Program-made: the position numbers and the translations under genes
The notes under the pieces: model-generated
What the model was told of the DNA's origin: nothing
Seen by the model: only the letters and a program-made list of their open reading frames with translations
Database searches by the model: none
Assembly (NCBI GenBank): GCA_945893365.1
Contig: CAMDED010000006.1
Span: 1 to 64,000 of the forward strand
Source of the DNA: Candidatus Sulfopaludibacter sp. SbA3
Lineage (GTDB): Bacteria; Acidobacteriota; Terriglobia; Bryobacterales; Bryobacteraceae
Length of the DNA stretch: 64,000 nucleotides
Direction of reading: 5' to 3'
Shown here: piece by piece, positions 158 to 62,373 of the stretch
Position numbering within the stretch: the stretch's first letter is position 1
Layout: every line of letters begins with the position of its first letter

Positions 158-162
158 AACGC

Positions 163-810: not shown

Positions 811-1247
811 GGAAAACGTCAAAGGGAGCGCCGCTTTTCAAAACATAAATCAACCGAAAACCGCTCGGTTCGGATCGGTGCGCCGCTACTGCCTCTCACC
901 CGTTGACACTGCCGTCCGGGGAGCCAGAATGATCCCCTTTACAGGCCCTCAACGACCCCCATTTCTTCTTGCTACCTGAAAAATGCCTTGCCAGCACCCT
1001 CAACGCCCACTCTGACACCAAAATTCTCGCCTTCCAACTACCTTGTGAAATATGCGGGCTAAGGTTGGCAAGAAGGTTCGGTGATGCGGCGCATCGTCAC
1101 CATGGTGTAAGCAAGCTGCCTGAGGCAGTAAGCGAATGTCATGTCAAACGGGTTCGGTTGCCGGGCGGTTATAGTGCTGGAGTGGGTTTGGCGTCCAGTG
1201 CCGCGCTCGATGCAGCCGGGCCGAACGCCCCGATTTCGCTTCGAAGC
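811..1247. other. Intergenic stretch, no supported gene
   Basis: Between the IS1380 remnant and the degenerate secreted-protein gene. Open frames here are short and show no family features. It may hold further IS-flanking sequence, but no inverted repeat, RNA gene or promoter was recognised. Confidence 0.5.
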
Positions 1248-1975: not shown

Positions 1976-2070
1976 CCTCCAAGTTTCGCGATCGAGGGTT
2001 CCGGCTACCATGCATGAATCTGTATCGCGGCAACCGGCTTCAGGCAAAACGCCTGCTATGATCTGAAGAG

Positions 2071-3180
2071 ATGGTGAGGCGCAGAGCAATTTTTCCTCTC
2101 CCCTTGGCGGCGCTTCAGGCCGCGCCCGCCGCCTCGGACCCTCGAGTGTACGCGTACGGCGACGGCGTGCCGCTGACTCCGGCGGAATACTCCCGGCTGC
2201 TGGCCAGCCTCGCCGGCTCGGATGGCGTCGCGGCGGACAGCTATTCACTGGGGGGCGTCGTCGAAAAGCTGGAGACCCGCATGGCGTCGCTGCTGGGAAA
2301 GGAGGCGGCAGTCTGGCTCCCAACCGGAACGCTTGCCAACCATCTCGCCGTGCGCTTGCTCGCCGGAGGCAAACGGCGCGTCCTCGTGCAGGCCGAAAGT
2401 CACCTCTACAACGATTGCGGCGACTGCGCCCAAACATTGAGCGGCCTGCATTTGGTTCCCCTGGCGAAAGGGCGGGCCACTTTCTCTCTGGAGGAAGCTG
2501 AGCGGGCCGCGAACGAGGCGATGCTCGGGCGCGTGGAAGTTCCCGTCGGCGCAATTCAAATCGAAACGCCCGTTCGGCGGCGAGACGGAGAGCGCTTCGA
2601 CTTCACGGAGATGAAGAAGATCTCCGCTTGGGCGCGCGACCGCAAGATCGGACTCCATTTGGATGGCGCGCGATTGTTCCTCGAGAGCGGCTACACGTCG
2701 AGGTCCGTCAAAGAGTACGGGGATCTGTTCGATACCGTTTACGTCTCGCTTTACAAGTATTTCAACGCGGCAAGCGGCGCGGTTCTCGCCGGGCCGAAGG
2801 CGCTGCTTTCCGGGCTGTTCCACACGCGCCGGATGTTCGGCGGAGGGCTGCCCCACGTGTGGCCGTTCGCCGCCGTCGCGCTTCACTATCTGGAAGGATT
2901 CGACCGGCGCTTCCGGACCAGTGTCGAGACCGCCGAACGCGTCTTCTCCACACTCCGCTCGGATTCGAACTTCGAGATCGAGCGGGTTTTGAACGGGACC
3001 AACAACTTTCGGATGCGGGTGAGCGGGGTGAATGCACCGGTTTATCAGGGAAGGCTTGAGGCGGCAGGCATCAGCGCGCGAGTTCCAACCGGAGACTGGT
3101 TCGCGATGCAAGTGAACGAAACCTGGGCACGGCTGCCTGCCGCCGAGATCGCAGCCAGATTCCGCAAAGCGCTCGGTTGA
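2071..3180 (+). CDS. Threonine aldolase / beta-eliminating lyase family PLP enzyme, with export-like N-terminus
   Basis: The 369-residue product belongs to fold-type I PLP enzymes of the low-specificity threonine aldolase/aromatic amino acid beta-eliminating lyase group, which cleave beta-hydroxy amino acids (for example threonine to glycine and acetaldehyde) or eliminate side chains. Visible features are the substrate/PLP region SYSLGGVVEKLE and LPTGTLANHLAV, the cofactor Asp in HLDGARL, and the Schiff-base Lys in VSLYKYFNAASGAVL at residue 229. The first ~22 residues (MVRRRAIFPLPLAALQAAP) look like a weak signal peptide, which is unusual for this cytoplasmic family; a later internal start is possible. 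It stands alone on the plus strand. The exact substrate cannot be told. Confidence 0.8.
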   Translation: MVRRRAIFPLPLAALQAAPAASDPRVYAYGDGVPLTPAEYSRLLASLAGSDGVAADSYSLGGVVEKLETRMASLLGKEAAVWLPTGTLANHLAVRLLAGGKRRVLVQAESHLYNDCGDCAQTLSGLHLVPLAKGRATFSLEEAERAANEAMLGRVEVPVGAIQIETPVRRRDGERFDFTEMKKISAWARDRKIGLHLDGARLFLESGYTSRSVKEYGDLFDTVYVSLYKYFNAASGAVLAGPKALLSGLFHTRRMFGGGLPHVWPFAAVALHYLEGFDRRFRTSVETAERVFSTLRSDSNFEIERVLNGTNNFRMRVSGVNAPVYQGRLEAAGISARVPTGDWFAMQVNETWARLPAAEIAARFRKALG

Positions 3181-3206
3181 AGCTCGGACGAAACAAGGCT
3201 CGTACC

Positions 3207-3238
3207 AAAAAAAAAGGCCGACCCTTGCGGATCGGCCT
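3207..3238 (-). terminator. Intrinsic terminator for minus-strand transcript
   Basis: Read leftwards, a GC-rich hairpin with stem GGCCGA/TCGGCC (3232-3237 and 3216-3221) is followed by nine consecutive T. It ends transcription coming from the glycosyltransferase operon or from the candidate small RNA just upstream. Confidence 0.75.
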
Positions 3239-3355
3239 CGAAGCGATAGACCGGAGGCCGTCCCCCCGAACCAACCTCCAGTCTCACGCGAACAACTTGA
3301 TTCTGACAGGGAATCGGCGTCCGAACAAGGACCAAGGGTCCCAGTCGGAGGGCTA
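3207..3355 (-). ncRNA. Candidate structured small RNA or structured 3' UTR
   Basis: The ~130 nt between the glycosyltransferase stop codon (3369) and the intrinsic terminator hold no convincing minus-strand gene but do hold two further good hairpins. One has an outer stem TCCGA/TCGGA (3320-3324, 3345-3349) with inner stem GGACC/GGTCC (3329-3333, 3337-3341). The other is a 9-bp stem at 3249-3257 with 3275-3283 (GACTGGAGG pairing CCTCCGGTC in the RNA). Three hairpins ending in a T-run is the layout of a free-standing sRNA. No clear promoter was found, so a long 3' UTR is equally possible. No known RNA family was recognised. Confidence 0.35.
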
Positions 3356-3368
3356 ATGCGTACTAGCA

Positions 3369-4064
3369 CTATCGGACTACGAGATATAAGCGCGCCAGAC
3401 GTTCGGGGGCGACGCCGAGGGAGTATAAGGCCTGGATGAGGACCCACGAAGCAAGCGTTGAGAAAGCCCCGCGGTCCCTCCAGCGGCGGCCGGAAACTTC
3501 AATCGGATCGTCAAGTAGCGCAAGGCAGCGGCCGTGATCGCTTTGCTGCCAGAGCCGTCGCGCGAACTCGTAGTCCTCCATGATGGGCCATGTCCGGTAG
3601 CCGCGGAATGTCTGAAAGACCTCGCGGCGGCAGAAAATGCCCGAATCGCCATAGAACACACCCCAGCGGCGGCGCCACCGGTTCACCCGGCTGAAAGTAG
3701 CCGAGATCCAACCCCCTTCATACCGGATATCGAAATTACCGCCCAAAACCTCCGGATTCGCCATGGCAGCCCGCAAGGTCTGAATGGCCCCCGGGCCAAG
3801 GCGCGTATCGGCATGCAGGAAAAGCAGGACGTCGGAGCGTGCGGCGTTCGCCCCCGTATTCATCTGATGCCCACGATTTGGAGTGGGGAGCGTAACGACG
3901 CAGGCGCGGCCGTTCTCTTGCGCCCTTTCGACGGTGCGGTCCGTCGAATTGCCGTCGGCGACGATGATCTCTTGCGCCCCGAGCGTCGCCAGGTGTTCGA
4001 GCAAGCCTGAAATCGTGGACTCCTCGTTAAGAGTCGGGACGACGATGGCGACGCTTGGAATCAA
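3369..4064 (-). CDS. Family 2 glycosyltransferase (TIGR04283-like)
   Basis: The 231-residue product is a GT-A fold family 2 glycosyltransferase, predicted to move a sugar from a nucleotide sugar. It opens with the typical strand SVAIVVPTLNEES and has VADGNSTD, the metal-binding HAD at residues 84-86 (FLHADTRLG), and the acceptor-side Glu-Asp in PIMEDYEFARRL. Length and the single-domain plan fit the TIGR04283 (transferase 2, rSAM/selenodomain-associated-like) group. The start is taken as TTG at 4064, overlapping the stop of the upstream gene (AATTGA), since the open frame upstream of it has no family resemblance. It forms a two-gene unit with the 167-residue hypothetical. Confidence 0.82.
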   Translation of the reverse strand: MIPSVAIVVPTLNEESTISGLLEHLATLGAQEIIVADGNSTDRTVERAQENGRACVVTLPTPNRGHQMNTGANAARSDVLLFLHADTRLGPGAIQTLRAAMANPEVLGGNFDIRYEGGWISATFSRVNRWRRRWGVFYGDSGIFCRREVFQTFRGYRTWPIMEDYEFARRLWQQSDHGRCLALLDDPIEVSGRRWRDRGAFSTLASWVLIQALYSLGVAPERLARLYLVVR

Positions 4065-4564
4065 TTCCGCGGGCCGATGCCTTCCGTGCGTCCAGCGAGC
4101 GGCTGCACGACCGCCCCACCACAGACGGCAACGCCGGTCTTGGTGAGCGCATTCAGGAAATTGAAGAAGAGCGCGTAGACCACCTGCTCCGTGATAGGTT
4201 GCCTGCCGGGCATGCGGAATCCCGCCGGCAGCTCCTTGGCAATTCGGACCCGGACCGAATTTGGAGCTGTCTTGCCGCCGCGATCCTTGGCGTTTGCTAC
4301 GGCGAGCGGAGTTTGCATCACGTTTCCGGAACGCCCATCGACGTAGAACTGGCATCGCGAAAACCAGCCCAGGTTGGCCGGATCGGCTGCGTCGAACAGG
4401 AGCAGTGGCGCCTGCCGGTCCAAAGCGGTGAGGTCCACCTGCAGGCAGCGGGCGGAGTCTTCGAGTTTCCCGTCAAAACCCGCCTGCTTGACCACGCTGT
4501 TGACCAGATCAAGATCGAGTTCGAGAAGAATCAGTTTATGCTGCCCGGCTTGCAAGACCTGCAT
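4061..4564 (-). CDS. Hypothetical protein upstream of the glycosyltransferase
   Basis: A 167-residue protein of unknown family. It starts MQVLQAGQHKLILLELD and reads like a soluble alpha/beta protein, with LDRQAPLLLFDAADPANLG, NSVRVRIAKELPAGF and a glycine/alanine-rich end NALTKTGVAVCGGAVV. Its stop codon overlaps the TTG start of the glycosyltransferase, so translation of the two is probably coupled. No motif pointing to an activity was seen. Support for it being real comes from coupling and protein-like composition, not from homology. Confidence 0.55.
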   Translation of the reverse strand: MQVLQAGQHKLILLELDLDLVNSVVKQAGFDGKLEDSARCLQVDLTALDRQAPLLLFDAADPANLGWFSRCQFYVDGRSGNVMQTPLAVANAKDRGGKTAPNSVRVRIAKELPAGFRMPGRQPITEQVVYALFFNFLNALTKTGVAVCGGAVVQPLAGRTEGIGPRN

Positions 4565-5334
4565 GAGACTACTACTTTACCACTCGCGCTAGCGGAAGGC
4601 GGGCGGTCGCAAGGCGCCGCCGGTATATAGGCCAGTGCTAAATAATCAGATGCTGCATGCACGCGGGAAAACCCAACCGCGCACCCGCCGATGAAGCTGC
4701 TTTGCCGGCGTCTTGGACCGGCGCATGCCTTCGCCCATGGCCGATGGTGGTGCTTCAGTGGCCCATTTCCACCACAATTGACCCGAACTCGGCCGTTCCG
4801 GCCGAAGCGGCGGGCTTTCCGCGCCGAAAGCACACCCCAAAGAATCAATGGAATAACCATTGGGCTATGCCCGCTCTCGGCCTTTGCGGCCTTTTGTCGC
4901 TTAAACTTTGCCGGAAAGAACCGCGCCTTCGGCTTCCGCCCAGCGGCTCGCCGCGGGTCCGGGATCATCGCAGCCAGGGCCTTCGCGGCCTCTTCTCCAC
5001 AATTGACGGCTGGGCGTCGGTCCGGGACGGCCCACCGCTTGAGGCGTTCGCTCGCCGGACAGACGGGTCCTGGCGGCGCGCTCTGGCTTGCCGGGCGCCA
5101 CCTGCGGTGAATGATAACCGTCACTGGCAGAATAATATAAGAGAAGTTTCCAAGTGCGTCGCGGCCGCGGGACGGGCCAAAATTCACTCGACCGGCATTT
5201 TACGGTACCGTTTCGGCCTCCCGAGCTTACCCGTCTCCTGTGCCACCGGTGATCCGGCTGTGGCGGTGCGTCACACCTTTTTGAAATTCAAACGTCTGAG
5301 AAGAAAGAGAAATGATTCTGGCGCCAATATTGCT
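4565..5334. other. 770-bp stretch without a supported gene
   Basis: Long frames exist on both strands because of high GC, but none shows protein-like composition apart from the C-terminal end used by the small membrane protein that follows. Short GC-rich inverted repeats occur around 4880-4990 (several GGCC-type hairpins). No promoter or RNA was recognised with confidence. Confidence 0.5.
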
Positions 5335-5586
5335 ATGAACCGGAGCATGGCGATCACGAAAATCACAGGACACGGTTTGGCGACGATAGCGGTACTGGTC
5401 GCTATTCTCTGGGGATGCCTCTTCCTGGAGCGGACTATCGTGCGCCGGGCACGGATTCAACATTACCGCGCGCTTCGCGACATCCGTACCATGCAGCTTA
5501 GAAAGGGCGTTCAGCCGGTCTCGACGCCTGCGCAACCCTCGAATCCGGGCTACTCAACCGGATCAAAGGGCCCCGCGATCGGGTAA
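5335..5586 (+). CDS. Small single-pass membrane protein
   Basis: An 83-residue protein, MNRSMAITKITGHGLATI onward. It has one strong transmembrane helix (approx. residues 13-32, ATIAVLVAILWGCLFLE), followed by a basic stretch VRRARIQHYRALRDIRTM and a Pro/Ser-rich tail. By the positive-inside rule the basic C-terminal part should face the cytoplasm. The frame is open far upstream, but only this segment looks like a protein; ATG at 5335 or 5347 are the plausible starts. Function unknown. It converges with the minus-strand secreted protein, overlapping it by about 24 bases. Confidence 0.5.
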   Translation: MNRSMAITKITGHGLATIAVLVAILWGCLFLERTIVRRARIQHYRALRDIRTMQLRKGVQPVSTPAQPSNPGYSTGSKGPAIG

Positions 5587-51128: not shown

Positions 51129-53489
51129 TCAACGTTTCGGAGTCAGGACTTCCGGTTTCACCTGGTTCAAGTGACTGGCGGCATCCTGTTTCAACGCGTT
51201 CAAACCCGAGATATTCAGCGTCCGCTGCGGTATGACCGGCTCCGGCGCGACCGCGCCTCCCTGCGAATTGCGGAAAGGCACGCTCAACACAATTTCCCGG
51301 ATGAGCGTCCGTGCCCGATAGCCGTCCTTCGCTGCCGTTTCGACAAGCCGCTCGACGGTGCAGCTATCGCCATCCTGCAGGCTCCGGCCGAGCGCGTAGC
51401 CGAGCACGCGGCCCGTCAGATTCCGCACGAAGTCGTCCTTGCGGTCAAGCAAAGCTTTGCGCAGCTCCACCGGGCCGTTGAACCTTTCGCCCGACGGCAG
51501 CACGCCCATCGCGTCAACCGGTTTGCCATCGGCCTCCTTGTCGCGCCAACGGCCCATCCAGTCGAAATTCTCCAAACCGAGACCGATCGGGTCCATCAGG
51601 TTGTGGCACGCCGCGCAGGAGGGGTCCGCGCGATGCCGCGCCAGTTGCTCCCGCACGTTGAGCTTCACGCCGTTTACTCCGCCGGCCTTCAACTGCGGCA
51701 CGTCGGGCGGCGGAGGCGGAACCGGCGTCCCAAGCAACGTTTCGAGAGCCCAGGCTCCGCGAAGCACCGGACTCGTCTCCTGGTAACGCGACGTCATCGC
51801 CAGCACGCCGCTGAGACCGAGGACGCCCGCGCGCCGGTTATCCGGCCACTCGACCAGGCGGAACTCGCTGTCGTTGAGCGCGGCTTTCACCCGATCCTCG
51901 ATCTGATAGAACTTCGCGAGGCGCTGCGTCAGGTGCGTATAGTCGGCATTCAGCAGCTCGATCACGCTGCGGTTTTCGCCGAGGATGCGGTCGAACAGCA
52001 GGACGGGCTGCGCCTTCAGATCGGCCGCGATGTCCGGGGTGTAGTAAGACTGGATTTCAGTGATCAGCGGCATCACGCGCCCGCCAATATCCTGCGTGCC
52101 CAGCCACTGTCCGACAAAGCTATTGACGAAGGTGCGCGACCGCGGGTCGTCGAGCATCCGCTCCACCTGAGCGGCGAGCACTTTCGGGTCCTGGAGCCGG
52201 CGCTGTTCGGCCAGCCGGAATAGCGGCTCGTCGGGCATGGTGGACCAAAGAAAATACGAGAGCCGCGTGGCGAGTTCGTATTGGCTCAGAGGATAGACGC
52301 CTGGCTTTTCCTGCTTCCGTTCGATTCGAAACAGAAACTCGGGCCACACGAGCACCGCTTTCAGAGTGAGCTTGACGCGCTCCTCGTAGGGGTCGCCGCG
52401 TTCCGCGGCCCGGTCGTACATTGCGAGGAACCGCTCGATCTCATCCGGCGTCACAGGTCTCCGGAAAGCCTTCGGAAGGAGCGTTTCGAGGATCTGGCGC
52501 GCGGCCTTGCGAGGCTGGAGCGGCCGCTCTCCGGGTTCCATGCCGAATAAGCGATAATGCAAGGCTCGCTTCTCGGATAGAGGCGGGTCCTTCTTCTGTA
52601 ATATGGTCAGACTCGTGAGCGCCGCAACGGATTCGCCGGGAGCCACCGACAACATGCGCGTGCCGCGCGCGAGGTTGACTTGAAGCCGGGCGACGGTCGC
52701 GCGGGGCGACGCTTTGCGATCCGCGCGCCTCCGCTGTATCGCCATCGCGCCCACATCCGCGCCGTCCACCTTGAGCGACAACGCGGGCGTGGACTCGCCT
52801 GCTTCGAAGGCTACCAGCACGTCATAGCTCCCATCCATGTAGACAGGGACGCTCGCGGAAAGCCCCTCGGCCGGCTTCAAGGGGTCGGCTGTGATGGTCA
52901 TCGAGAGCGGAGGAGAGATGAGGACGCGGTCGAGAATCTGCTGCGCGGCTTCGAGATAACGCTCCGTCAACACAGGCGGCACGAACAGCGTTTCGCCATT
53001 CGTATCGAATCCCGCGCCGCCGGTTCCATCGGCGGGGAGAATTCCCAGGACTTCAAAATCGATGCCCAGCAGATCGCGAATCGTGTTATGGTACTCGCGC
53101 CGGTTCAGACGCCGCGTGATCGCTGCGCCCGCGTACTCTCCGGCGCTGCAAGCGGTTTCGCGGAGGCGGTTGTCGATCCAGGCCGATACGCGAAAGCGAT
53201 CTTCCTCGCTGAGTTTGACCGCGGCCGTCTGCCCGGCGGGCGGCATGGTTCGGTTACGTATCTGGGCAGCCACGCTCCGCCACAATCCGCGGTTCGACTC
53301 GATTGCGCCGACGTCCTCGCCCTTCAGAAAAGCCGCCGGATTCTTCGGGTTGCCGGAGTTGTGACAGGCCGCGCAATTCCGCACCAGGACCGGTCGAATC
53401 TTCTGAGCGAATTCCTGGGCGGCATCGGGCGCGGACCGCGCTGCGCCCGGCAATAGAAGCGCCGCGAAGGCGAGTGAAAGAAGGCGCAT
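51129..53489 (-). CDS. DUF1592/DUF1588-type cytochrome c-like protein (second copy)
   Basis: A 786-residue paralogue of the protein at 47967-50321. It has a signal peptide (LLSLAFAALLLPGAARSAPD), N-terminal heme motif CAACHNSGNPKN, DUF1587 (ITRRLNRREYHNTIRDLLGI), DUF1592 (YELATRLSYFLWSTMPDEPL), DUF1588 with the second heme motif CAACHNLMDPIGLGLENFD, and DUF1585 (LTGRVLGYALGRSLQ). In this copy the gene follows its DUF1552 partner (four-base gap at 53490-53493), the reverse of the first pair. Periplasmic, function unknown, probably redox. Confidence 0.9.
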   Translation of the reverse strand: MRLLSLAFAALLLPGAARSAPDAAQEFAQKIRPVLVRNCAACHNSGNPKNPAAFLKGEDVGAIESNRGLWRSVAAQIRNRTMPPAGQTAAVKLSEEDRFRVSAWIDNRLRETACSAGEYAGAAITRRLNRREYHNTIRDLLGIDFEVLGILPADGTGGAGFDTNGETLFVPPVLTERYLEAAQQILDRVLISPPLSMTITADPLKPAEGLSASVPVYMDGSYDVLVAFEAGESTPALSLKVDGADVGAMAIQRRRADRKASPRATVARLQVNLARGTRMLSVAPGESVAALTSLTILQKKDPPLSEKRALHYRLFGMEPGERPLQPRKAARQILETLLPKAFRRPVTPDEIERFLAMYDRAAERGDPYEERVKLTLKAVLVWPEFLFRIERKQEKPGVYPLSQYELATRLSYFLWSTMPDEPLFRLAEQRRLQDPKVLAAQVERMLDDPRSRTFVNSFVGQWLGTQDIGGRVMPLITEIQSYYTPDIAADLKAQPVLLFDRILGENRSVIELLNADYTHLTQRLAKFYQIEDRVKAALNDSEFRLVEWPDNRRAGVLGLSGVLAMTSRYQETSPVLRGAWALETLLGTPVPPPPPDVPQLKAGGVNGVKLNVREQLARHRADPSCAACHNLMDPIGLGLENFDWMGRWRDKEADGKPVDAMGVLPSGERFNGPVELRKALLDRKDDFVRNLTGRVLGYALGRSLQDGDSCTVERLVETAAKDGYRARTLIREIVLSVPFRNSQGGAVAPEPVIPQRTLNISGLNALKQDAASHLNQVKPEVLTPKR

Positions 53490-53493
53490 GAAA

Positions 53494-54870
53494 CTAAGAA
53501 AGGCCTTCGAGCGCGCCGGTGCTGTCTCCGAACGACTTCTCCATGATCCCCATCCGGTTCAACATCGCCAGATACAGATTGCACACAGGCGTTCTTTCGG
53601 GAGCGCGCAGCCGGCGTCCGGGACGCAGCGCGCCTTTACCCCGCCCGGCCAGAAACAGCGGCAGGTTTTCCACGGCGTGGCGGTTTCCGTCTTTGAGCGA
53701 ACCGCCGAACATGATCATCGAATTGTCCAGCAGCGACGTTCCGCCTTCATCGAGGCTCTTAACCTTGCCAAGGAAATACGCCATTTGCTCCGTATGCCAG
53801 TTGATGATCTTTCCGTATTGCTCGCGGGTGGGCGGGTCGTCGGCGTGATGCGAAAGTGAATGGAAGCCGCCGCGTACGCCGGGCAGGAAGGAATAGTCCT
53901 GGCTCGATTGCGCGTCGCCGAACATGAAGGTGCCGATGCGCGTCGAGTCGGACCAGAACGCCAGTATGAAGATATCGAGCATCAGCCGGACGTGCTCCTC
54001 ATGAGTTGCCGGAATCCCCGCGGCGGGACGGTCGAGCGGGAACTTTCCCTGATTGATCCAGCGCTTCTGAGGGCGGAGGGAGGCTTCGAGGCGCTGCTCG
54101 ACCGAGCGCACGGATTCGAAATACTCGTCGAGCCTCACGCGGTCGGAAGCGCTGCCGTTTTGCCGCAGCGATTTCGCGCCTTCGAGCACCAGGTCGAGGA
54201 CGCTCTTGTCGTCGCGCTGGAGGGCGGAGAGGAGCGCCGGGTCCTTCGGATTGACGCTCGAAACCACGGGCGCGCGGTTGTTCCGGAACAAGCGGTCGAA
54301 GGCCAGTTGCGGGACGATTTCCTTGGGCACGGGCGTGTGCCGGTCCCGCCAGGAGATGAAGGAGCCGTACATGCGGGCGAAGCCGCCGCCAGCGGTATCG
54401 ATCCCGTTGCGCGGCGTGTCGAGGCCCAGTTCGATGGTCGGGATCGACGTCAGAGAGCCTATGCGCTGTCCGGCCAATTGATCGGCCGAGGTTGCGCCGG
54501 TGTCAAGATCGTCCGCGGTCGTGCGCTGGACGTAGCCGCCGGAGAGCCAGATCGGCACCTTCGGCCAGTGCCCGTTTCGCCCGACGGAATTCCGATTCCA
54601 GAGATTTTCCAGCAGGATGAAATCGTTCTTGAATTTTTCGAGAGGCTTCAAGTGGGGCGTGATCTCGTAGTCCTCGCCGTCACCGGGCGGTGTCCACTGC
54701 TCGGGGCGCACGCCGTTCGGCATAAACATGAATGCCATGCGGAGGGGCGGTTCGGACAGCGTTTGCACGCCGTTCGCGGGGGCGGCGTCCGACATCCGTT
54801 CAAGCCACGGCAGCGAGAGCGCTACGCCTGCGCCGCGCAAGAGTGTTCGTCTGGCGATCGATTTGGACAT
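53494..54870 (-). CDS. DUF1552 Tat-exported protein (second copy)
   Basis: A 458-residue DUF1552 protein with Tat signal SKSIARRTLLRGAGVALSLP. Family segments match the first copy: FMPNGVRPEQWTPPG, LLDNSMIMFGGSLKDGNRHA, NLPLFLAGRGKGALRPGRRL and TPVCNLYLAMLNRMG. ATG 54870 has AGGAAG about nine bases upstream and is preferred to the long extension to 55020. First gene of a two-gene operon with the DUF1592 protein. Confidence 0.88.
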   Translation of the reverse strand: MSKSIARRTLLRGAGVALSLPWLERMSDAAPANGVQTLSEPPLRMAFMFMPNGVRPEQWTPPGDGEDYEITPHLKPLEKFKNDFILLENLWNRNSVGRNGHWPKVPIWLSGGYVQRTTADDLDTGATSADQLAGQRIGSLTSIPTIELGLDTPRNGIDTAGGGFARMYGSFISWRDRHTPVPKEIVPQLAFDRLFRNNRAPVVSSVNPKDPALLSALQRDDKSVLDLVLEGAKSLRQNGSASDRVRLDEYFESVRSVEQRLEASLRPQKRWINQGKFPLDRPAAGIPATHEEHVRLMLDIFILAFWSDSTRIGTFMFGDAQSSQDYSFLPGVRGGFHSLSHHADDPPTREQYGKIINWHTEQMAYFLGKVKSLDEGGTSLLDNSMIMFGGSLKDGNRHAVENLPLFLAGRGKGALRPGRRLRAPERTPVCNLYLAMLNRMGIMEKSFGDSTGALEGLS

Positions 54871-55195
54871 AGAAGTACTTCCTGCGGGTGGGCACAACCT
54901 CCGCTGCCTGAGTTTATCAGAATCGTCGCTGCGGAGGAGGGCATAGTCTGGCCATTGTTGCCGATGCACAACGGGTTCCGTTGTGCTCGGGATGTGGAGC
55001 GGGAGGCGTCCAGTCCGCATGCCGGAGCCGGACTGGTCAAGGCTGCTTCGGGTGTGCGTTCTTCACTTCCGGATCGCGCTCCGGACGCGGCGCCCCCCGG
55101 CCCTGTGGTAGCGAAAGCGAAGCTTGGCCGGGGTGAAGGGGGGTGGCCAAAAACTTTCGAGCGGCTTCGGCGCTAAAGGGAAAAGGAAAAAAGAA
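54871..55195. other. Intergenic region upstream of the second DUF1552 gene
   Basis: 325 bases between the DUF1552 start and the ancestral end of the SIR2-NACHT-SUMF1 gene. It must hold the promoter of the DUF1552 operon, but no clear -35/-10 pair was identified. The purine-rich run near 55178-55193 lies just past the ancestral SUMF1 stop. Confidence 0.4.
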
Positions 55196-55390
55196 TCAAG
55201 GGAACACTTCCCGGACGCACCGGAACCCGATATCGCCGTTCCTGAAGCCAGGCACGAACCCGACCCGGCCGGCGGCGCGCAGGAGGACCGCTTCATCGAC
55301 GTAGAACGACGCCCCCCGCACGCTGCGATACTGCTTCGAGTCGCCGTACCAGTCCTCAACCCACTCCCAGACATTACCCGCCAGATCCCG
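55196..55390 (-). pseudogene. Out-of-frame C-terminal tail of the SUMF1 domain
   Basis: Shifting one base at ~55388-55391 (a G run on the coding strand) restores the conserved ending of the formylglycine-generating enzyme fold: DLAGNVWEWVEDWYG, then YRSVRGASFYVDEAVLLRAA and FRNGDIGFRCVREVFP followed by TGA at 55196. These 65 residues include the core Trp-Glu-Trp and the final GFRC strand of the domain. In the sequence as given they are not translated as part of the protein, which stops at TAA 55374-55376. Confidence 0.8.
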
Positions 55391-55451
55391 CGATCCCCTC
55401 GGGCGTAGAGCCTCGCGGAAAAAGCCCTACCGGGCTGGCTTGCCCAAGCTT
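55355..55451. repeat. Direct repeat copy A (97 bp), inside the SUMF1 region
   Basis: Matches 58345-58441 at 91 of 97 positions with no gaps, offset 2990 bases. It codes on the minus strand for LGQASPVGLFPRGSTPEGIA and the start of the NVWEW motif. Both copies carry the same extra base that breaks the SUMF1 frame. Confidence 0.9.
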
Positions 55452-58271
55452 CGTCTCACGGTAGTTCGCCCGGTCGGGATCGGGCTCCTCATTGCCCCAC
55501 GGATACTCGCGTCCCTCCGCGCCCCGCGCGGCCCGTTCCCACTCCGCCTCGCTCGGCAACCCCACCCGCGCCCAATCGCAGTAGGCTTTCGCCTCGAACC
55601 AGGTAACACCCTTGACAGGACAATTGGGCCGCAGTAACTGGCCGTCCCATCGCCCAGGTTTGGGCCCGCCATCGTCCACAAATCGCGCATACTCCTGAAC
55701 GGTCACCGGATACTTTCCGATCAGGAAGCCCTCCATCTTCACCCAATAATCCGAATCGCTCGGGAGACGAAACCTTGGATCCCCCGCCTGCCCCAACGCT
55801 TCCGCGGCCGCCAATCGCGTCTGCAAGGGAATTGCGGCGGCCTTATTCGTCTCGAAGATGCCCAGCACCGCGCTTTTCACCTCGGCATACCGCGGATCGG
55901 GCGGCGCGTAGCCAAGCGGCTGCAAATCCCGCAGCATGGCGCCCAACAAGCCGAAGCAACGCGCCTGCTCATCGAGCTTCGGCTTCGCTCCCGCCCGCTG
56001 GGGGGAGCCGTACAAATCGTCCAGCGCCGCCGACACCAGCGCGTCTACGTTCTGATCCCGCTGCTGATGCAGGATGCTGGCCAGCAGGAGCACCACCTCG
56101 CGCCACTCCGGCCGCCACGCGCGTCCTTCGGCGAACAGCAACGAGTGCCGCTCGGCGGGGTCGATGCTGGCCAGAAACCGCGCCGCCAGGAATTCTTGAA
56201 AGGTGAGGTGCCAGAACCCGATGTCCGCGCCGCGGTTGACCACAATTCCGCTATCCGCTTCCTCTTCCCTCAGAAACGCCAGCGCGCGCGCTGCGTCGCC
56301 CTGAAACTGCGACTTCACCGCGTTGGCCGCCCACTCGCGCGGAACCTGCACCTGCCTCCCTTCCGGATGCCCTTGCATCGCGCCCGCCAGCTCTTGCAGA
56401 ACCTTTATGCAGTCTTCCGGATGCAGCCTGCCCGAGCGCCGCTTTCGCGAGCGGACCAGCCACATCAGGATTGAATCGTACAGGTCGGCCCGCCGCTCGG
56501 GCATCCGCTTCTCGTTCCACTGCAGCGCAGCGAGCGCGGTCAGCATCACGGGATTGCTGGCGATGTGCCGGATCTCCACCCGGCTTTCCACCGCTTCGAT
56601 CAATTCCCGGGCATGACGTTCTGCCCGCTGCGGGTTTTCGGCCATCAGCGCGGCTGCCCATCGCTCCGGAAACGCTCGCACGGCTTCCGGCTCCAGAGGA
56701 CCGATTCGCGCGGCGTGAAAACCCGCGAGCATCGCCACTTTTTCATGGGCTTTGGGACGAGTCGTCACCACGAACCGGCAGTTCGGCCACGCCCGCGCCG
56801 CTTTCTCAATCAGCCGCGAAACGGTCTTGCGCGCAGCCTCGCTGGGAGCCTCATCCAACCCATCCAGCAGCAGCAGGCACGGTCCCCTGGTGAGTTGCCG
56901 CTTAAAGAAATCCTCGTCCAGTGGGACGGCGAGGTCTCGCGTCCGGTGGGCCAGCAGAAGCGGCATCAGCGCGGGTGCGTCTTTCCGCTCGTGGCGCTCG
57001 ACGAACTCGGAAAGCTCGGAGATCTGCAGCAGAAGCGGGAACGGCGCGGACGCATCGGCGAGCCGGGCCGTGCACTGCGCGTTCGCGATGCGCCGCAGGA
57101 AGGTCGTCTTGCCCGATCCCGGATCGCCCAGAATTACGAGCCGTGGATGGGCGAGCGACTCCTCAAGGGGCCGGCGGCCTCGCCCGCCGTCGATCTCGTC
57201 CGCCATTCTCATCTGGCCCATCTCGTCGAACAGCGGAATGTAAAGATCGTCGATCGGAAATCGCGGAGCCACCGCGCCCAAGCGCAGCCCGCGAATCTCG
57301 ATGAAATCCGTGTCGTTGCGCAGGTATTCGAGATAGGGCCTGGGATCGGCCTCCATTGGCGGCAACTGCGCCGCGGTCCGCGCGCCGCTGGAATCGGCAT
57401 GACTGGCTAGCTCGCCGAGCAGGTCGAGCAGCGGCTGTCCGAAATCAGCGAAGGGGACCGTCTGCACCGATAGTCCATGCAGTGTCTTCGCCATCGCCTC
57501 CTGGTCTTGGTCCCGAATCAATACGAAGTGCTCGACGCCTCCACCCGCGAAGGCTTCCCGCACCCAACGGATCTGCTGTTCCATAGCCTCTTCCATGCCG
57601 AACCCGATGAACAGGAACGTCTGCGCCATGAGCAGGTGGCGCAACGTTCCGGACGCCGTCCGGTAGTCTGCCTCCACCTGGCCATCGATTGGGTACAGCT
57701 TCTGGTAACCGTCGGGCGTGAGAATAATCTCTTCTGGCCGGTCGATGGAGCCGTGCAAATGCCATACAGCAGGTCTGACCAGGCGACCGCGATGGATTTC
57801 AGCGAGATTTACGCGGTCGCTTACGGTCCAATGCCGTACGTCGCGCTCTTGCGGACTCGCCCACCGCAGCACTTTGTCGTAGTTGGTGGTCACCACCAAT
57901 GGGCTTCCCAACCGCCAGACGGTGCGCGGCAAATCGAGACTCGCCTGCGGCACGCGCTCCGCCAGCGGATCGAATTGCGCTTTGAGAAAGTCGAACCACC
58001 CCACTCCCATCGCATCGCGAGCCGCTTTCGCCGCACCGAGGTGATCCTTGATTCCCAATGTCGCTTGAACAAGGTTCGCGTGCATGGGCTTGCCATCCGT
58101 GCGCAACCGTTCCGCTGCCGCCACCAGAAGGCCATCCCAGGTAGGAAAGAGAGGCTGCCCCGCCTCATCGGTGACCGCGCGCGAAACACCGGCCCCGGCG
58201 AACGGGATCACTGTGCGGGCTTTCAGCGCTTCGACCAAGTTGGAGGGTAAGTCCGGCATAGCGGTCGCCAT
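55374..58271 (-). CDS. SIR2-NACHT-SUMF1 STAND-type protein, candidate anti-phage NADase sensor
   Basis: 965 residues. The N-terminal ~290 are a SIR2-like domain: VIPFAGAGVSRAV, LVVTTNYDKVL, and VWHLHGSIDRP with the catalytic-type His173. Residues ~375-560 are a NACHT NTPase: Walker A GDPGSGKTT (382-390, K388), Walker B LLLLDGLDEAP (D470, D473), sensor-like RFVVTTRP. A helical section follows (FWHLTFQEFLAARFL). From ~840 a formylglycine-enzyme (SUMF1) domain begins, VKMEGFLIGKYPVTVQEY, then VTWFEAKAYCDW, LPSEAEWERAARG and YPWGNEEPDPDRANYRE. In known SIR2-STAND proteins (Avs5/DSR-type) sensing of phage activates NAD depletion; that role here is inference. A one-base insertion truncates the sensor domain by ~65 residues. 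Confidence 0.85.
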   Translation of the reverse strand: MATAMPDLPSNLVEALKARTVIPFAGAGVSRAVTDEAGQPLFPTWDGLLVAAAERLRTDGKPMHANLVQATLGIKDHLGAAKAARDAMGVGWFDFLKAQFDPLAERVPQASLDLPRTVWRLGSPLVVTTNYDKVLRWASPQERDVRHWTVSDRVNLAEIHRGRLVRPAVWHLHGSIDRPEEIILTPDGYQKLYPIDGQVEADYRTASGTLRHLLMAQTFLFIGFGMEEAMEQQIRWVREAFAGGGVEHFVLIRDQDQEAMAKTLHGLSVQTVPFADFGQPLLDLLGELASHADSSGARTAAQLPPMEADPRPYLEYLRNDTDFIEIRGLRLGAVAPRFPIDDLYIPLFDEMGQMRMADEIDGGRGRRPLEESLAHPRLVILGDPGSGKTTFLRRIANAQCTARLADASAPFPLLLQISELSEFVERHERKDAPALMPLLLAHRTRDLAVPLDEDFFKRQLTRGPCLLLLDGLDEAPSEAARKTVSRLIEKAARAWPNCRFVVTTRPKAHEKVAMLAGFHAARIGPLEPEAVRAFPERWAAALMAENPQRAERHARELIEAVESRVEIRHIASNPVMLTALAALQWNEKRMPERRADLYDSILMWLVRSRKRRSGRLHPEDCIKVLQELAGAMQGHPEGRQVQVPREWAANAVKSQFQGDAARALAFLREEEADSGIVVNRGADIGFWHLTFQEFLAARFLASIDPAERHSLLFAEGRAWRPEWREVVLLLASILHQQRDQNVDALVSAALDDLYGSPQRAGAKPKLDEQARCFGLLGAMLRDLQPLGYAPPDPRYAEVKSAVLGIFETNKAAAIPLQTRLAAAEALGQAGDPRFRLPSDSDYWVKMEGFLIGKYPVTVQEYARFVDDGGPKPGRWDGQLLRPNCPVKGVTWFEAKAYCDWARVGLPSEAEWERAARGAEGREYPWGNEEPDPDRANYRETKLGQASPVGLFPRGSTPEGIAGSGG

Positions 58272-58344
58272 TCTCTCAAATAACGCCGCGCGCCGCTTGC
58301 TCAGACGGTGGCGAACTTGTTCGCCGGCGCCAGCGGTCTACGTT

Positions 58345-58441
58345 CTCAACCCACTCCCAGACATTACCCCCCAGATCCCGCGATCCCCTCGGGCGTAGTG
58401 CCTCGCGGAAAGCACCCTACCGGGCTAGCTTGCCCAAGCTT
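58345..58441. repeat. Direct repeat copy B (97 bp), relic of a second SUMF1 gene end
   Basis: Upstream of the SIR2-NACHT-SUMF1 start. On the minus strand it reads KLGQASPVGCFPRGTTPEGI and then, one base out of frame, GNVWEWVE. It is the same piece of SUMF1 coding sequence as copy A, without the rest of a gene. Most simply it is what remains of a neighbouring paralogue. Confidence 0.85.
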
Positions 58442-58455
58442 AGTCATCGCTTTCA

Positions 58456-58689: not shown

Positions 58690-58855
58690 TCAAAGATTGC
58701 AAATCGAGTTCTGGGGTATTCGTGCCGAAGGACGGGATGTTCCGAAGCTGAATGGTTCTCGGAAATCGCTTGTCGCCGGGCAGGCGCAATTCATTCTACC
58801 CGGCTTCGCAAAAACGCGTCCGCGCTCGGCAATTGGTCGCCGCCACTCCCTCCCC

Positions 58856-59443
58856 TTACAAATGCTTCTCAATAATCTTATCGATAATCCCGTACTCGCA
58901 CGCCTGGGGCGCTTCCATGATGAAATCCCGCTCCACGTCCCTCTGCAGCCGCTCGATCGTCTGCCCGGTGTGCTTCGCCAGAATCTCATTCGTCATCTCG
59001 CGCATCCGCAAAATCTCGCGAGCCTGAATATCGATATCCGTAGCCTGCCCCGACAACCCGCTCAGCGACGGCTGGTGAATCAGAATCCGCGCGTTCGGCA
59101 GCGCGAACCGCTTCCCCTTCGTCCCCGCGGTCAGCAGCAAAGCGCCCATCGACGCCGCCTGCCCCACGCAAATCGTGCTCACGTCGGGCCGGATAAACTG
59201 CATCGTGTCGTAAATCGCCAAGCCGGCCGTGATCGATCCTCCCGGTGAATTGATGTACAAGGAAATATCCTTCTCCGGGTCCTCCGCTTCCAAAAACAGC
59301 ATCTGAGCGGTCACCAGATTCGCCACCATATCGTCGATCGGCGTGCCGATGAAAATGATATTGTCCCTGAGCAGGCGCGAATAAATGTCGTAGGCGCGCT
59401 CGCCGCGGCTGGTCTGCTCCACCACCATCGGAACCAATGCCAT
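58856..59443 (-). CDS. clpP: ATP-dependent Clp protease proteolytic subunit
   Basis: A 195-residue ClpP serine peptidase. The Ser nucleophile is in [17 protein letters not shown], the His in ARILIHQPS, and the Asp follows in the [14 protein letters not shown] region. [19 protein letters not shown] forms the oxyanion/substrate strand. ATG 59443 ([19 protein letters not shown]) gives the family length. It starts ten bases after tig stops, the usual tig-clpP operon, but clpX, usually next, is absent; the SIR2-NACHT-SUMF1 region follows instead. Confidence 0.95.
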
Positions 59444-59453
59444 GGAGTCTCCT

Positions 59454-60755
59454 TTATACGCCTTCAGCGGGCGCCGCGGCCGGCTCTTCCGCAATCTTCG
59501 TCGCGTGCTCGAACAGGAAATTGAGCGTCTTCTCGGTCTGGATATGCGAGGCGATCCGTCCCAGCGTGCCGTCTTTCTCGAACCGGATTTTCACCGCCGC
59601 AACCGGCTCGCGCTGCTGGCGGGCGATCCGCTCCACTTCGCGGTCCACTTCATCCCGCATCGCGTGGATCGACTCGCGCTCCGACACCTTGCTCAACAGC
59701 AGGGACGCTTTCACCTCGCGAACCGCGCGGCCCCGCTCCTGTTCGTCCTTCATCACCTTCGCCCAGTCGAGCTTGAGCTTGCTGACGTCCAGGCCCTGCG
59801 CCGCCATCCCGCGAAGCGACTGCTCCACCCGCGTGCGGACCTGCCGCTCGATAAAGACCTCAGGCACTGGAAACTCGTGCAGGTCCACCAGCGATTCCAC
59901 CAGCGCGTTCTTCGCCTTCTGCTGGGCGTCGCGTTCCCGCTCCGCGTAGATCGACTTCCGTATCGCCTCGCGCAGCTCCCCAAGATCGCGGAAATCGCCC
60001 AAGTCCTTCGCGAACTCGTCGTTCAGCTCCGGCAATTCCTTGCGCCGGATGCCTTTCACCACGGCGTGAAAACTCACCGTCTTTCCCGCAAGCTTCTCCG
60101 AATCGTAGTTTTCGGGGTACGCGACATCGAAATTCTTCTCTTCGCCCGGCGACAGGCCGGTCAGGTTTTCCGAAAACGCCGGCAGCGTACTCTCGTCTCC
60201 CAGATGCAGCGTCATCTCCTCCTGCTTCACCGGCTCGCCATCCGTGCCGCCGACGCTCTCAAGGGAGATTACCGCGAAATCCCCCCTCTCAAGCGGGCGC
60301 GGATCCACGTTCGCGAAATTCGCCTTCTGCTCGCGAAGCTGCGCCACGCGCTCGTCGATATCGGCTTCGCCGGCCGAGGGCTCGCTATACGGAACCGTCA
60401 GCCCGCGGTATTCTTTCATCTCGATCTCAGGCGCTACCTCGAACTCCGCTTTGAAATGCAACGGCTCGCCCTCGTGAAAGTGAACGTCCGTCACGGTCGG
60501 GTCGCCAACCATCCGCAGTTCTTCCTGCTTCAGTTCCTTGTCGAAAAAGCGCGGCACGAGCTTCTCGAGCACCTGCTGCCTGATATCGGCCGCAAACTGT
60601 TTTCGAATGATGCTGACCGGCGCCTTGCCCGGACGGAATCCGGGAAGCTTCGCTCGCTTCTGTATGGACTCGACCACGCGACCGGTCTCGGCTTCCACGT
60701 CCGCGACGGGAATGGAGATTTCGAGCGAGTGCTTACAACCTTCAATGAAAGCCAA
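59454..60755 (-). CDS. tig: Trigger factor
   Basis: A 433-residue ribosome-associated chaperone and peptidyl-prolyl isomerase. The N-terminal ribosome-docking signature is [19 protein letters not shown]. The PPIase domain runs through [15 protein letters not shown] and [20 protein letters not shown], and the C-terminal chaperone arms follow. TTG 60755 is chosen because GAGGTGA (60763-60769) stands eight bases upstream and the length then matches E. coli (432); the ATG at 60791 lacks such a site. Divergent from the SYLF gene. Confidence 0.94.
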
Positions 60756-60762
60756 TCGGGAT

Positions 60763-60769
60763 TCACCTC
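60763..60769 (-). promoter_or_regulatory. Ribosome-binding site that fixes the tig start
   Basis: GAGGTGA on the minus strand, spaced 7-8 bases from TTG 60755. It supports the TTG rather than the upstream ATG at 60791 as the tig start. Confidence 0.6.
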
Positions 60770-60839
60770 GGAAGAGATTCCTTTTTATCATAACATCGGC
60801 GGAATAGACCGGTTAAAATGAGAGACGAGGAAAAGAACA

Positions 60840-61532
60840 ATGAAAAAACGAATGCCGCGTTTCCTTCTTTCTCTCGCTCTCGGCGCCGGCGTTGTGACCG
60901 CGAGCGCCGCCGCAACCAAGAGCGCGCAACGCCTGGCCGACGCCGCCACGGTGTTCACGGAAATCATGGATACGCCCGACCGCGCCATCCCGCAGGACCT
61001 AATCGAACGGGCGCAGTGCGTCGCGATCGTGCCCGGGCTCAAGAAAGCGGCGTTTGGCTTCGGCGGGAAGTTCGGTAGAGGTTTCGTCGTCTGCCGCAAT
61101 TCCGGCGCCGGGTGGGGAGCCCCGGCGGCCATACGCGTCGAAGGCGGCAGCGCCGGTTTCCAGATCGGCGTCTCGTCGTCCGATGTCGTCATGCTCGTGA
61201 TGAACAAGCGGGGAATGGAGAAGCTCCTCGGCAGCAGGTTCACCATCGGCGCGGACGCCCAGGCGGCCGCCGGTCCGGTGGGCCGCGAAGCGACGGCCGC
61301 GACCGACGTGCTCCTCTCGGCCGAAATCCTCTCCTGGTCCCGTTCGCGCGGCGCGTTTGCCGGAGTTTCGCTCGACGGAGCCACCCTTCGCCAGGACGCT
61401 GACGAGAACAAAGAGATTTACGGCAAGCCGCTCGAAAACCGGGACCTGATCGGCAAGGACGTGGAGATTCCCCCGGCGGCGGCCGCGCTGATTGCCGCGC
61501 TTAACAAACGCTCCATGAGATCGGGAAAGTAA
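60840..61532 (+). CDS. SYLF (YSC84) domain lipid-binding protein
   Basis: A 230-residue exported protein. Signal peptide MPRFLLSLALGAGVVTASAA is followed by a helical part and a SYLF/Ysc84 domain: AQCVAIVPGLKKAAFGFGGK, GRGFVVCRNSGAGWGAPAAI and SSSDVVMLVMNKRGMEKLLG. SYLF domains bind phosphoinositide-like or anionic lipids. Bacterial versions are periplasmic envelope proteins of unclear role. The YihY gene follows after seven bases, so they are probably co-transcribed. Confidence 0.87.
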   Translation: MKKRMPRFLLSLALGAGVVTASAAATKSAQRLADAATVFTEIMDTPDRAIPQDLIERAQCVAIVPGLKKAAFGFGGKFGRGFVVCRNSGAGWGAPAAIRVEGGSAGFQIGVSSSDVVMLVMNKRGMEKLLGSRFTIGADAQAAAGPVGREATAATDVLLSAEILSWSRSRGAFAGVSLDGATLRQDADENKEIYGKPLENRDLIGKDVEIPPAAAALIAALNKRSMRSGK

Positions 61533-61539
61533 CCGGCCC

Positions 61540-62373
61540 GTGCCTGCGCCGCGGCTCAACGCGAAAACGCTAGCATATCTTCTCAAGCAGACGCTGATCT
61601 CTGCGGTGGACGACGGCTGTTTCGCCGAGGCAAAGGGCGCCGCGTACTCGGCCATGCTCGCGTTCTTCCCGGTGCTGACTTCTTTCGCCACCGTTCTCGT
61701 GCAGACGCGCGCCGAGTTTGTGTCCGGCGCGATTGCGCAGTTTCTTTTCGACGTCGTCCCTCCCGGCACCGAGGACATTGTACGCCGGCCCTTTGAAATA
61801 AAAGCGGCGCAGCCTTTATTTCTCATCTCAGTTGCCGCCGTACTGGCCCTTTGGGCCGCGGCGGGCGTCATCAAGAGCCTGATGACCGGCTTCAACACCA
61901 CCTACCGGGTACCGCGCAGCCGCACTTTCTGGCAGGAGTCCGGCGTCGCGATTCTCCTCGTGCTATGGACCATCGCGCCTTTAATCGCGGCAAGCCTGCT
62001 CATCGTCTTTGGGAACTGGATCGACAGGCGTCTTACGGGGGCGCCGGCATTCTGGTGGCGTGTCCTGAGCCAGACCGCGCGCTACCTGCTGGCATTCGCG
62101 GCCACGGTAATCATAACCGCCGTGCTCTACTATTTCGGACCCTATCGCAAGCAGCGATGGACCTACGTGTGGCGCGGCGCGGTCTTCGCAACCGTGCTGT
62201 GGCTGCTCGCGACAGCCGGATTCGCCTGGTATGTTCGAAATCTGGCAACCTACAACGTCCTCTATGGAAGCTTGTGGACCGGCATCGCCCTGCTGGTTTG
62301 GATGTACCTCATCGCGGCCATCGCGCTGATCGGATGCGCATTCAACGCCGAATACGAGCGCATGGCGGAGTAG
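61540..62373 (+). CDS. YihY/BrkB-family inner-membrane protein
   Basis: A 277-residue polytopic protein with six predicted helices. Family motifs are AKGAAYSAMLAFFPVLTSFA near the start, AAGVIKSLMTGFNTTYRVP, AAVLYYFGPYRKQRWTYVWR and the last helix pair LYGSLWTGIALLVWMYLIAA with INCAFNAE-like GCAFNAEYERM. Start GTG 61540. Role in bacteria is not settled (once annotated ribonuclease BN in error). Co-directional with the SYLF gene. Confidence 0.88.
   Translation: MPAPRLNAKTLAYLLKQTLISAVDDGCFAEAKGAAYSAMLAFFPVLTSFATVLVQTRAEFVSGAIAQFLFDVVPPGTEDIVRRPFEIKAAQPLFLISVAAVLALWAAAGVIKSLMTGFNTTYRVPRSRTFWQESGVAILLVLWTIAPLIAASLLIVFGNWIDRRLTGAPAFWWRVLSQTARYLLAFAATVIITAVLYYFGPYRKQRWTYVWRGAVFATVLWLLATAGFAWYVRNLATYNVLYGSLWTGIALLVWMYLIAAIALIGCAFNAEYERMAE

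What the first reader, a model, noticed from the sequence alone, without database searches (positions are those of the whole stretch)
55196..58271. SIR2-NACHT-SUMF1: candidate NAD-depleting immune sensor with a C-lectin-like sensing domain
Seen: one gene joins a SIR2-like domain (GAGVS, TTNYD, LHG), a NACHT NTPase with intact Walker A and B, and a SUMF1/formylglycine-enzyme domain at the C-terminus. Known: SIR2-STAND proteins (Avs5, SIR2-containing defence proteins such as Thoeris ThsA and DSR2) protect against phage by NAD depletion, and C-terminal parts of STAND proteins do the sensing. Inference: here a SUMF1/C-lectin fold takes the sensor place. I know of no characterised defence system with exactly this trio. 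It sits in an accessory spot beside debris and housekeeping genes.
Basis: partly seen in the sequence, partly recalled or inferred. Interest (0 to 1): 0.88.

Follow-up and report, generated by a model that had tools for sequence, protein, structure and literature searches.

The report
Hypermutable SIR2-NACHT immune receptor gene
This gene joins a predicted NAD-destroying head to a molecular switch and a lectin-like sensor whose tip carries the mark of a reverse-transcriptase system that rewrites it at random, so it looks like a bacterial immune receptor with a self-mutating antigen-binding site, although this particular copy is broken in its reading frame.

Summary
The trio is real: SIR2_2, NACHT and FGE/SUMF1 domains in one gene. 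The reading frame breaks near 55375-55390, so the last FGE piece (55196-55378) is out of frame.

That piece is the variable region (VR) of a diversity-generating retroelement (DGR). The template repeat (TR) and reverse transcriptase lie on another contig of the genome. In the 80-nt core, 16 of 24 template adenines differ in the VR and 0 of 56 other bases differ. A pattern with N at every template A hits only these two places in the 7.9-Mb assembly.

Relatives generalise this. SIR2-NACHT-FGE genes with RT, TR and VR in cis occur in a planctomycete and an uncultured bacterium. Of 94 NACHT-FGE tails, 21 have an adenine-only partner nearby; C, G and T controls give 0, 1 and 1.

Best reading: an Avs5-like SIR2 NADase-STAND receptor with a hypermutable C-lectin sensor. 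DGR-linked STAND-FGE sensors are known (PMC8195603, PMC10907252); my searches found none with SIR2 as effector. Function is inferred. As sequenced, this copy should lack its sensor tip; intact copies exist in a sister genome.

The parts
55377..58271 (-). Main ORF (965 aa): SIR2_2-NACHT-FGE (first part of FGE); likely true start about 58259
57372..58271 (-). SIR2-like effector domain with GAGVS, TTNYD and HG motifs
56655..57140 (-). NACHT (STAND NTPase) domain
55413..55745 (-). N-terminal part of the FGE/C-lectin domain, in the main frame
55374..55391 (-). Reading-frame break inside the FGE domain (main frame stops at 55374)
55196..55378 (-). C-terminal part of the FGE domain in the shifted frame, ending at a stop at 55196
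55209..55321 (-). DGR variable region; its template repeat is on contig C245 (L018), not in the window
55352..55455 (-). Copy 1 of the 104-nt repeat (inside the FGE domain, just before the VR)
58342..58445 (-). Copy 2 of the 104-nt repeat, a diverged FGE fragment upstream of the gene
54972..54996 (+). Convergent remnant resembling the 3' end of a VR/TR
   Evidence: resemblance judged by eye

Best explanation
The gene encodes (or recently encoded) an NLR-like intracellular receptor. The FGE/C-lectin tail is the ligand-binding sensor; a DGR rewrites its tip by copying a template repeat through an error-prone reverse transcriptase that randomises adenines, and the copy replaces the VR. Ligand binding switches the NACHT domain to an oligomeric state, which activates the SIR2 domain to hydrolyse NAD+ and stop or kill the infected cell. 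Shown here: the domain anatomy, conserved catalytic motifs, the adenine-specific TR/VR relation, a predicted C-lectin fold, and recurrence of the same arrangement with RT and TR in cis in other bacteria. Inferred: NADase activity, oligomerisation, phage or other non-self as the ligand, and that the DGR acts on this locus in trans. The window copy has a frame break just before the VR, so as sequenced it should make a receptor with a truncated sensor.
For: TR/VR: in the 80-nt core 16 of 24 template A's changed, 0 of 56 non-A changed; over 97 nt 18 of 27 vs 3 of 70, Fisher p 2.6e-10. Genome-wide pattern: 2 hits, both with 0 mismatches, control 0. The RT ORF ends at the edge of the TR; its best solved relative is 8ub7, E 3e-42 (a DGR RT by recall), against 1.8e-22 for the next, a group II intron RT. 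TR: 17 of 24 codons hold an A, 13/13/1 at codon positions 1/2/3. Cis loci: L089 (SIR2-NACHT-FGE and DUF4062-NACHT-FGE sharing one RT/TR: 15 of 30 and 13 of 30 A changed, 1 and 0 of 95 others) and L142 (two SIR2-NACHT-FGE; one VR 15 of 27 A, 2 of 103 others). Base control: A 21 of 94 tails, C 0, G 1, T 1. FGE model of a sister copy, pLDDT 95, matches the DGR proteins TvpA and Mtd. SIR2 model of the window protein matches ThsA, DSR2 and Avs5. Motifs equal those named for Avs5 in PMC12931631. dN/dS about 0.3.
Against: The VR of this copy is out of frame. RT and TR are on another contig, and the VR has one codon more than the present TR, so it was not copied unaltered from that TR. The paralogue C147 is also frame-broken, within NACHT. 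No DGR RT was found at E<=1e-20 in the sister genome with intact copies (86% complete). 73 of 94 relatives' tails show no A-only partner in the DNA held, many flanks being short. The four neighbours I scanned are not defence genes: clpP, trigger factor, PSD and HXXSHH genes. The fold match alone is not specific to DGR proteins. No functional data.
Confidence: 0.72

Rival explanations
1. The window copy is simply a dead pseudogene of a DGR-diversified receptor; its VR is a fossil.
For: Frame break before the VR; debris on both sides; second copy also frame-broken.
Against: 965 codons otherwise open and dN/dS about 0.3. In the 104-nt repeat sharing the break, all 8 differences are best read as changes of the upstream copy (6 sites where all four outgroup copies agree with the gene, 2 where three of four do) and 0 of the gene copy. 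VR non-A sites still match the TR at 56 of 56 in the core, which may mean homing more recent than the break.
Confidence: 0.45
2. The same receptor class, but serving self/non-self (kin) recognition instead of phage defence, as PMC10907252 also suggests for its systems.
For: The paper offers this alternative (passage); nothing here identifies the ligand.
Against: A SIR2-STAND protein of known function (Avs5) acts against phage (passages).
Confidence: 0.25
3. The FGE domain is an enzyme (formylglycine-generating or sulfoxide-synthase type) and the NACHT-SIR2 part regulates it.
For: Pfam name and strong similarity to EgtB and FGE structures.
Against: Adenine-only hypervariation in the C-terminal part; no cysteine between RGASF and GFRC in the window tail, where the FGE cysteine pair lies by recall; the only PDB sequence matching the sister-copy domain at E<=1e-20 is SUMF2.
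Confidence: 0.03
4. The frame break is a programmed frameshift or phase switch that hides or exposes the sensor.
For: The sequence around the break seems to have been held since the duplication.
Against: The C147 paralogue and the three sister-genome copies have no such break; I saw no slippery signal by eye and ran no search for one.
Confidence: 0.06

Closest known systems
DGR-diversified STAND/NACHT-CLec targets of Thiohalocapsa PB-PSB1 and other multicellular bacteria (PMC10907252)
   Same: Central NACHT/STAND NTPase, C-terminal FGE/C-lectin with VR, DGR RT and TR, proposed antigen sensors
   Different: Effectors named in the passages seen are adapter, peptidase, TIR and others; its main text has no 'SIR2'. 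Here SIR2, in a Bryobacterales-type acidobacterium, with RT and TR on another contig
STAND NTPase-FGS conflict systems (PMC8195603)
   Different: SIR2 occurs once in its main text, for another (GreA/B-C) system; the passages seen hold no TR/VR test for a SIR2 protein
Avs5 (SIR2-STAND), PMC12931631
   Same: SIR2 NADase with GAGXS, TTNXD (and HG or NG) plus STAND ATPase plus C-terminal sensor; fold match Z 18-19
   Different: Avs5 senses an early jumbo-phage protein; here the sensor place holds an FGE C-lectin with a DGR VR
ThsA / DSR2 / KomC SIR2 effectors
   Same: SIR2 fold, Z about 18-23
   Different: Different regulatory and sensor parts (from general knowledge)
TvpA and Mtd DGR variable proteins
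   Same: C-lectin fold with VR at the C-terminus (fold; VR place recalled)
   Different: Not fused to NACHT or SIR2 (recalled)

Membership tests
Diversity-generating retroelement target | TR/VR pair with substitutions confined to template adenines | tested here: met
   16 of 24 A, 0 of 56 non-A in the core
Diversity-generating retroelement target | DGR-type reverse transcriptase beside the TR | tested here: met
   RVT_1 ORF ending at the TR on C245, N-terminus cut by the contig end; best PDB match 8ub7 (DGR RT by recall)
Diversity-generating retroelement target | VR in a C-lectin-fold C-terminus | tested here: met
   (model made on the sister-genome copy)
Diversity-generating retroelement target | VR translated in frame with the target gene | tested here: not met
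   for the window copy; in frame in the three sister-genome copies, whose own TR was not identified
Diversity-generating retroelement target | Ongoing diversification in the population | not testable with these tools
   no reads; metagenome scans capped at 0
SIR2-STAND NADase defence proteins (Avs5-like) | SIR2 domain with NAD-binding/catalytic motifs GAGxS, TTNxD, HG | tested here: met
SIR2-STAND NADase defence proteins (Avs5-like) | STAND/NACHT NTPase with Walker A and B | tested here: met
SIR2-STAND NADase defence proteins (Avs5-like) | Recognised by a defence-system model as Avs5 | tested here: inconclusive
   12 PADLOC families at E<=0.1 (LmuA, ThsA, Dsr1, Dsr2 and weaker ones); no Avs5 row; whether the library has such a model is unknown
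SIR2-STAND NADase defence proteins (Avs5-like) | NAD+ depletion on phage infection | not testable with these tools
   needs assay
Formylglycine-generating enzyme | FGE fold | tested here: met
Formylglycine-generating enzyme | Active-site cysteine pair | tested here: inconclusive
   no Cys between RGASF and GFRC in the window tail; that the pair lies there is recalled, not computed

The most novel reading that the evidence does not exclude
SIR2 NADase receptors form a branch of bacterial immune receptors whose antigen-binding site is rewritten by reverse transcription. One RT/TR serves several receptors with different effectors (in L089 SIR2 and DUF4062, both NADase-type), and in the window genome a target lies away from its RT, so one mutator feeds a dispersed repertoire: hypermutation of sensors with NAD depletion as the common output.
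Probability: 0.5. Interest if true: 0.85.

Novelty: new variant of a known kind. Interest (0 to 1): 0.64.

Why it matters
It ties a well-understood bacterial suicide output (NAD+ hydrolysis by SIR2) to a sensor that appears to be hypermutated on purpose. The open question of what DGR-diversified cellular proteins recognise becomes testable, because NAD loss is a simple readout: libraries of VRs can be screened against phages or phage proteins. It is also a case where the target lies on a different contig from its RT and TR (a possibility already noted in PMC8195603), so finders that look only next to the RT would miss it.

Tried and rejected
Upstream 104-nt repeat as a template repeat: rejected, its differences are not adenine-specific and all are best read as changes of the upstream copy. 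RT-like hits on C242, C238 and C147 at 31-34% identity: taken as group II intron type from low identity and by eye, not classified further. A second DGR for the C147 VR: not found; N-rich TR-like sequences lie convergent behind the sister-genome copies, but fit the C147 VR poorly by eye. Mobility: 1 plasmid record of 72,556 (Thiodictyon, E<=1e-20) and 0 phage records of 50,697 (E<=1e-10). Promoter scan 0 hits, terminator scan at chance level. The hairpin at 55212-55200 after the VR might be a DGR target-site hairpin (recalled feature), but the scan total is at chance level. (first, uncontrolled TR/VR scan) also gave a few low-complexity or N-run hits (L104, L106, L107) that I dropped; one search replaces it for counts. 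Literature searches: 'diversity-generating retroelement' with NACHT, SIR2, anti-phage, STAND, Acidobacteri; 'SIR2, NACHT, formylglycine'; 'NACHT, SIR2, phage defense, C-terminal sensor'. Six papers hold both the DGR term and SIR2; I looked at the passages of five, and none describes a SIR2 DGR target; the sixth (PMC12611946, ageing) I saw in the listing only. Supplements were not readable, so figures or tables may hold one.

Full report
Observation. The ORF on the minus strand, 58271..55374, is 965 aa. Pfam gives SIR2_2 at residues 125-267, NACHT at 378-539 and FGE-sulfatase at 843-953; the rest of the FGE profile (positions 183-255) lies in the next frame, 55378..55196. The break is shared by a diverged 104-nt duplicate 2,990 bases away (92% identity). 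Aligned with the C147 paralogue and three sister-genome copies, all 8 differences between the duplicates are best read as changes of the upstream copy (at 6 sites all four outgroup copies agree with the gene, at 2 sites three of four do), and both duplicates carry the frame difference. The break is therefore probably older than the duplicate's decay and unlikely to be a random sequencing error.

What the tail is. A DNA search of the genome with the FGE tail found the gene itself, the C147 paralogue, the 104-nt duplicate and a match of 119 query bases on C245. C245 carries a reverse transcriptase ORF ending at the edge of that match. The match is a template repeat. From the shared ATGAAGCG onward, 16 of 24 template A's and 0 of 56 other bases differ in the first 80 nt; over 97 nt it is 18 of 27 against 3 of 70, Fisher p 2.6e-10, the three non-A changes lying at the 3' edge. 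On the 5' side the shared stretch has one non-A change, and the VR is one codon longer than the TR. A pattern with N at each A and up to 3 mismatches allowed finds just these two places in 7.88 Mb, each with none; the backward control finds none. In frame, the template has A in 17 of 24 codons, at codon positions 1, 2, 3 in 13, 13 and 1 cases. The RT's best solved match is 8ub7 (E 3e-42; I recall it as the BPP-1 DGR enzyme), ahead of group II intron RTs (1.8e-22).

Where RT and TR are. No RT hit falls in C6, the contig of the window, so the RT and TR lie at least 5.7 kb from the gene. C274 carries Metallophos-NACHT-FGE and ends exactly at the first variable codon, after 18 bases identical to the TR start. 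I infer that C274 may hold the main target of the C245 element and the window gene a remote one; contig breaks leave this open.

Relatives. In 200 genomes of the family (at most 4 candidates scored per genome, so counts are lower bounds), 40 have a match at E<=1e-30, mostly to the NACHT-FGE part; 6 of the 200 have matches reaching into the SIR2 part. Two of those six show the full trio (own genome and G061); G106 is cut by a contig end; in G163, G083 and G052 the four SIR2-NACHT genes I scanned have no FGE match, two of them carrying WD40/pentapeptide tails. G061 has three copies with different VRs, open through the FGE end; one is cut at its N-terminus by the contig start. No DGR RT was found there at E<=1e-20, while 9 of the 13 genomes of that call have one. 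L074 and L075 (record SYKU01) appear to be the same genome as G061, judged by coordinates. The genome scan gave 79 loci. By BLAST (E<=1e-5, ORFs of 150 aa or more) 18 of 79 have an RT ORF like that of C245 in the DNA held, many flanks being cut by contig ends. The controlled scan of 94 FGE tails found an A-only partner for 21 (16 loci), against 0, 1 and 1 for C, G and T. Two of these loci carry SIR2-NACHT-FGE: L089, a planctomycete, where SIR2-NACHT-FGE and DUF4062-NACHT-FGE share one RT and TR, and L142, an uncultured bacterium with two SIR2-NACHT-FGE genes; in one of the latter NACHT scores just below Pfam's cut-off (25.9 against 26.7). That gene's VR has a one-base offset inside it and scored badly in the ungapped comparison (25 of 27 A and 38 of 103 other bases differing), though 66 nt of it pair cleanly (14 A, 0 other).

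Effectors. Of 81 N-termini scanned (those of the 94 ORFs with at least 150 residues before the NACHT match), DUF4062 matches 26, Metallophos 26, TIR_2 7, SIR2_2 6, Trypsin_2 2, SEFIR 1 and HD-CE 1, among 17 families; families may overlap, and the call does not tell how many members match nothing. A 2026 preprint reports that DUF4062 is a TIR-like NADase with anti-phage action (PMC13174449; start of abstract and passages seen). NAD+ destruction may thus be a common output of these receptors. The sample was found with the window protein, which biases it.

Mechanism. The SIR2 part holds GAGVS, TTNYD and HG; GAGXS, TTNXD and HG are the motifs discussed for Avs5 in PMC12931631 (passages seen). Among 12 relatives aligned, HG is invariant and TTNYD kept wherever the row covers it; L089 has GSGVS, and the two L142 rows were cut to start after GAGVS, one of them after TTNYD. 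The model of the window SIR2 part (pLDDT 81) matches ThsA (Z 22.7, rmsd 3.2, 261 aligned), DSR2 and Avs5 filaments. The FGE model (sister copy, pLDDT 95) matches TvpA (Z 24.7, rmsd 2.1, 179 aligned) and Mtd (Z 16), but equally FGE, EgtB and CalU17, so the fold alone does not decide; the adenine-only variation does. The sites that vary most across 49 relatives (202-204, 206-207, 212, 214-217, 219-220, 222-224 of the modelled domain, besides loop and end positions) sit between conserved RGGS, R and GFR positions. Sensor binding, NACHT switching and NAD+ hydrolysis follow from knowledge of Avs5 and NLRs, not from a test here.

State of the window copy. Changes unique to the window copy fall at codon positions 1, 2, 3 in 37, 28 and 61 cases, those of C147 in 30, 25 and 53; dN/dS is 0.35 against C147 and 0.30 against a sister copy: the gene was under selection for most of its history. 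As sequenced it stops before the VR. C147 has an intact FGE frame but its own break in NACHT. The locus looks accessory: in a comparison with one sister-genome contig, synteny covers 58854-62373 (clpP, trigger factor) and stops at the gene side, while the sister copies sit elsewhere, a few kb from an ORF that reads by eye as an ABC ATPase (not Pfam-tested).

Known and new. PMC8195603 (passages seen) predicted STAND-FGS receptors with TIR, DRHyd or calcineurin effectors and DGRs nearby or elsewhere in the genome. PMC10907252 (abstract and passages seen) showed DGR-diversified NACHT/STAND-CLec targets. PMC7159879 (passages seen) links FGS domains and DGRs to ternary conflict systems. I found no text with SIR2 as the effector (searches; passages; open-licence papers only). 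I therefore rate this a new variant of a known kind.

Noticed in passing
L015 (C147) 2516-5573 (-); 471-722 and 851-1285: Paralogue of the window gene with an intact FGE frame and different VR but a frame break in NACHT, next to broken fragments of a reverse transcriptase that look like a group II intron type.
   Followed up: partly
L017 (C274) 1-3210 (-): Metallophos-NACHT-FGE gene whose contig ends exactly at the first variable codon; its last 18 bases equal the start of the TR on C245, as if assembly failed at a hypervariable site.
   Followed up: partly
L074 9290-9640 and 12900-13300, L075 2700-3200 (reverse strand): TR-like, asparagine-codon-rich sequences lie convergent behind each SIR2-NACHT-FGE copy of the sister genome with no RT found in that genome; only a 3' remnant is left in the window (54972-54996).
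   Followed up: partly
L089 4815-12502: One RT/TR serves two targets with different effectors, SIR2 and DUF4062 (the latter reported as a NADase), a compact locus for bench work.
   Followed up: yes
L174 6763-9792, L176 123-3371: Related SIR2-NACHT proteins carry WD40/pentapeptide tails instead of FGE, so the sensor module is swapped.
   Followed up: partly
L016 4780-7824 (-): DUF4062-NACHT-FGE in the same genome with a VR-like tail; the C245 TR pattern does not hit it.
   Followed up: no
window 51129-55020 (-): PSD-type (DUF1592/1588/1585) and HXXSHH (DUF1552) genes beside the receptor, an ordinary pair.
   Followed up: no
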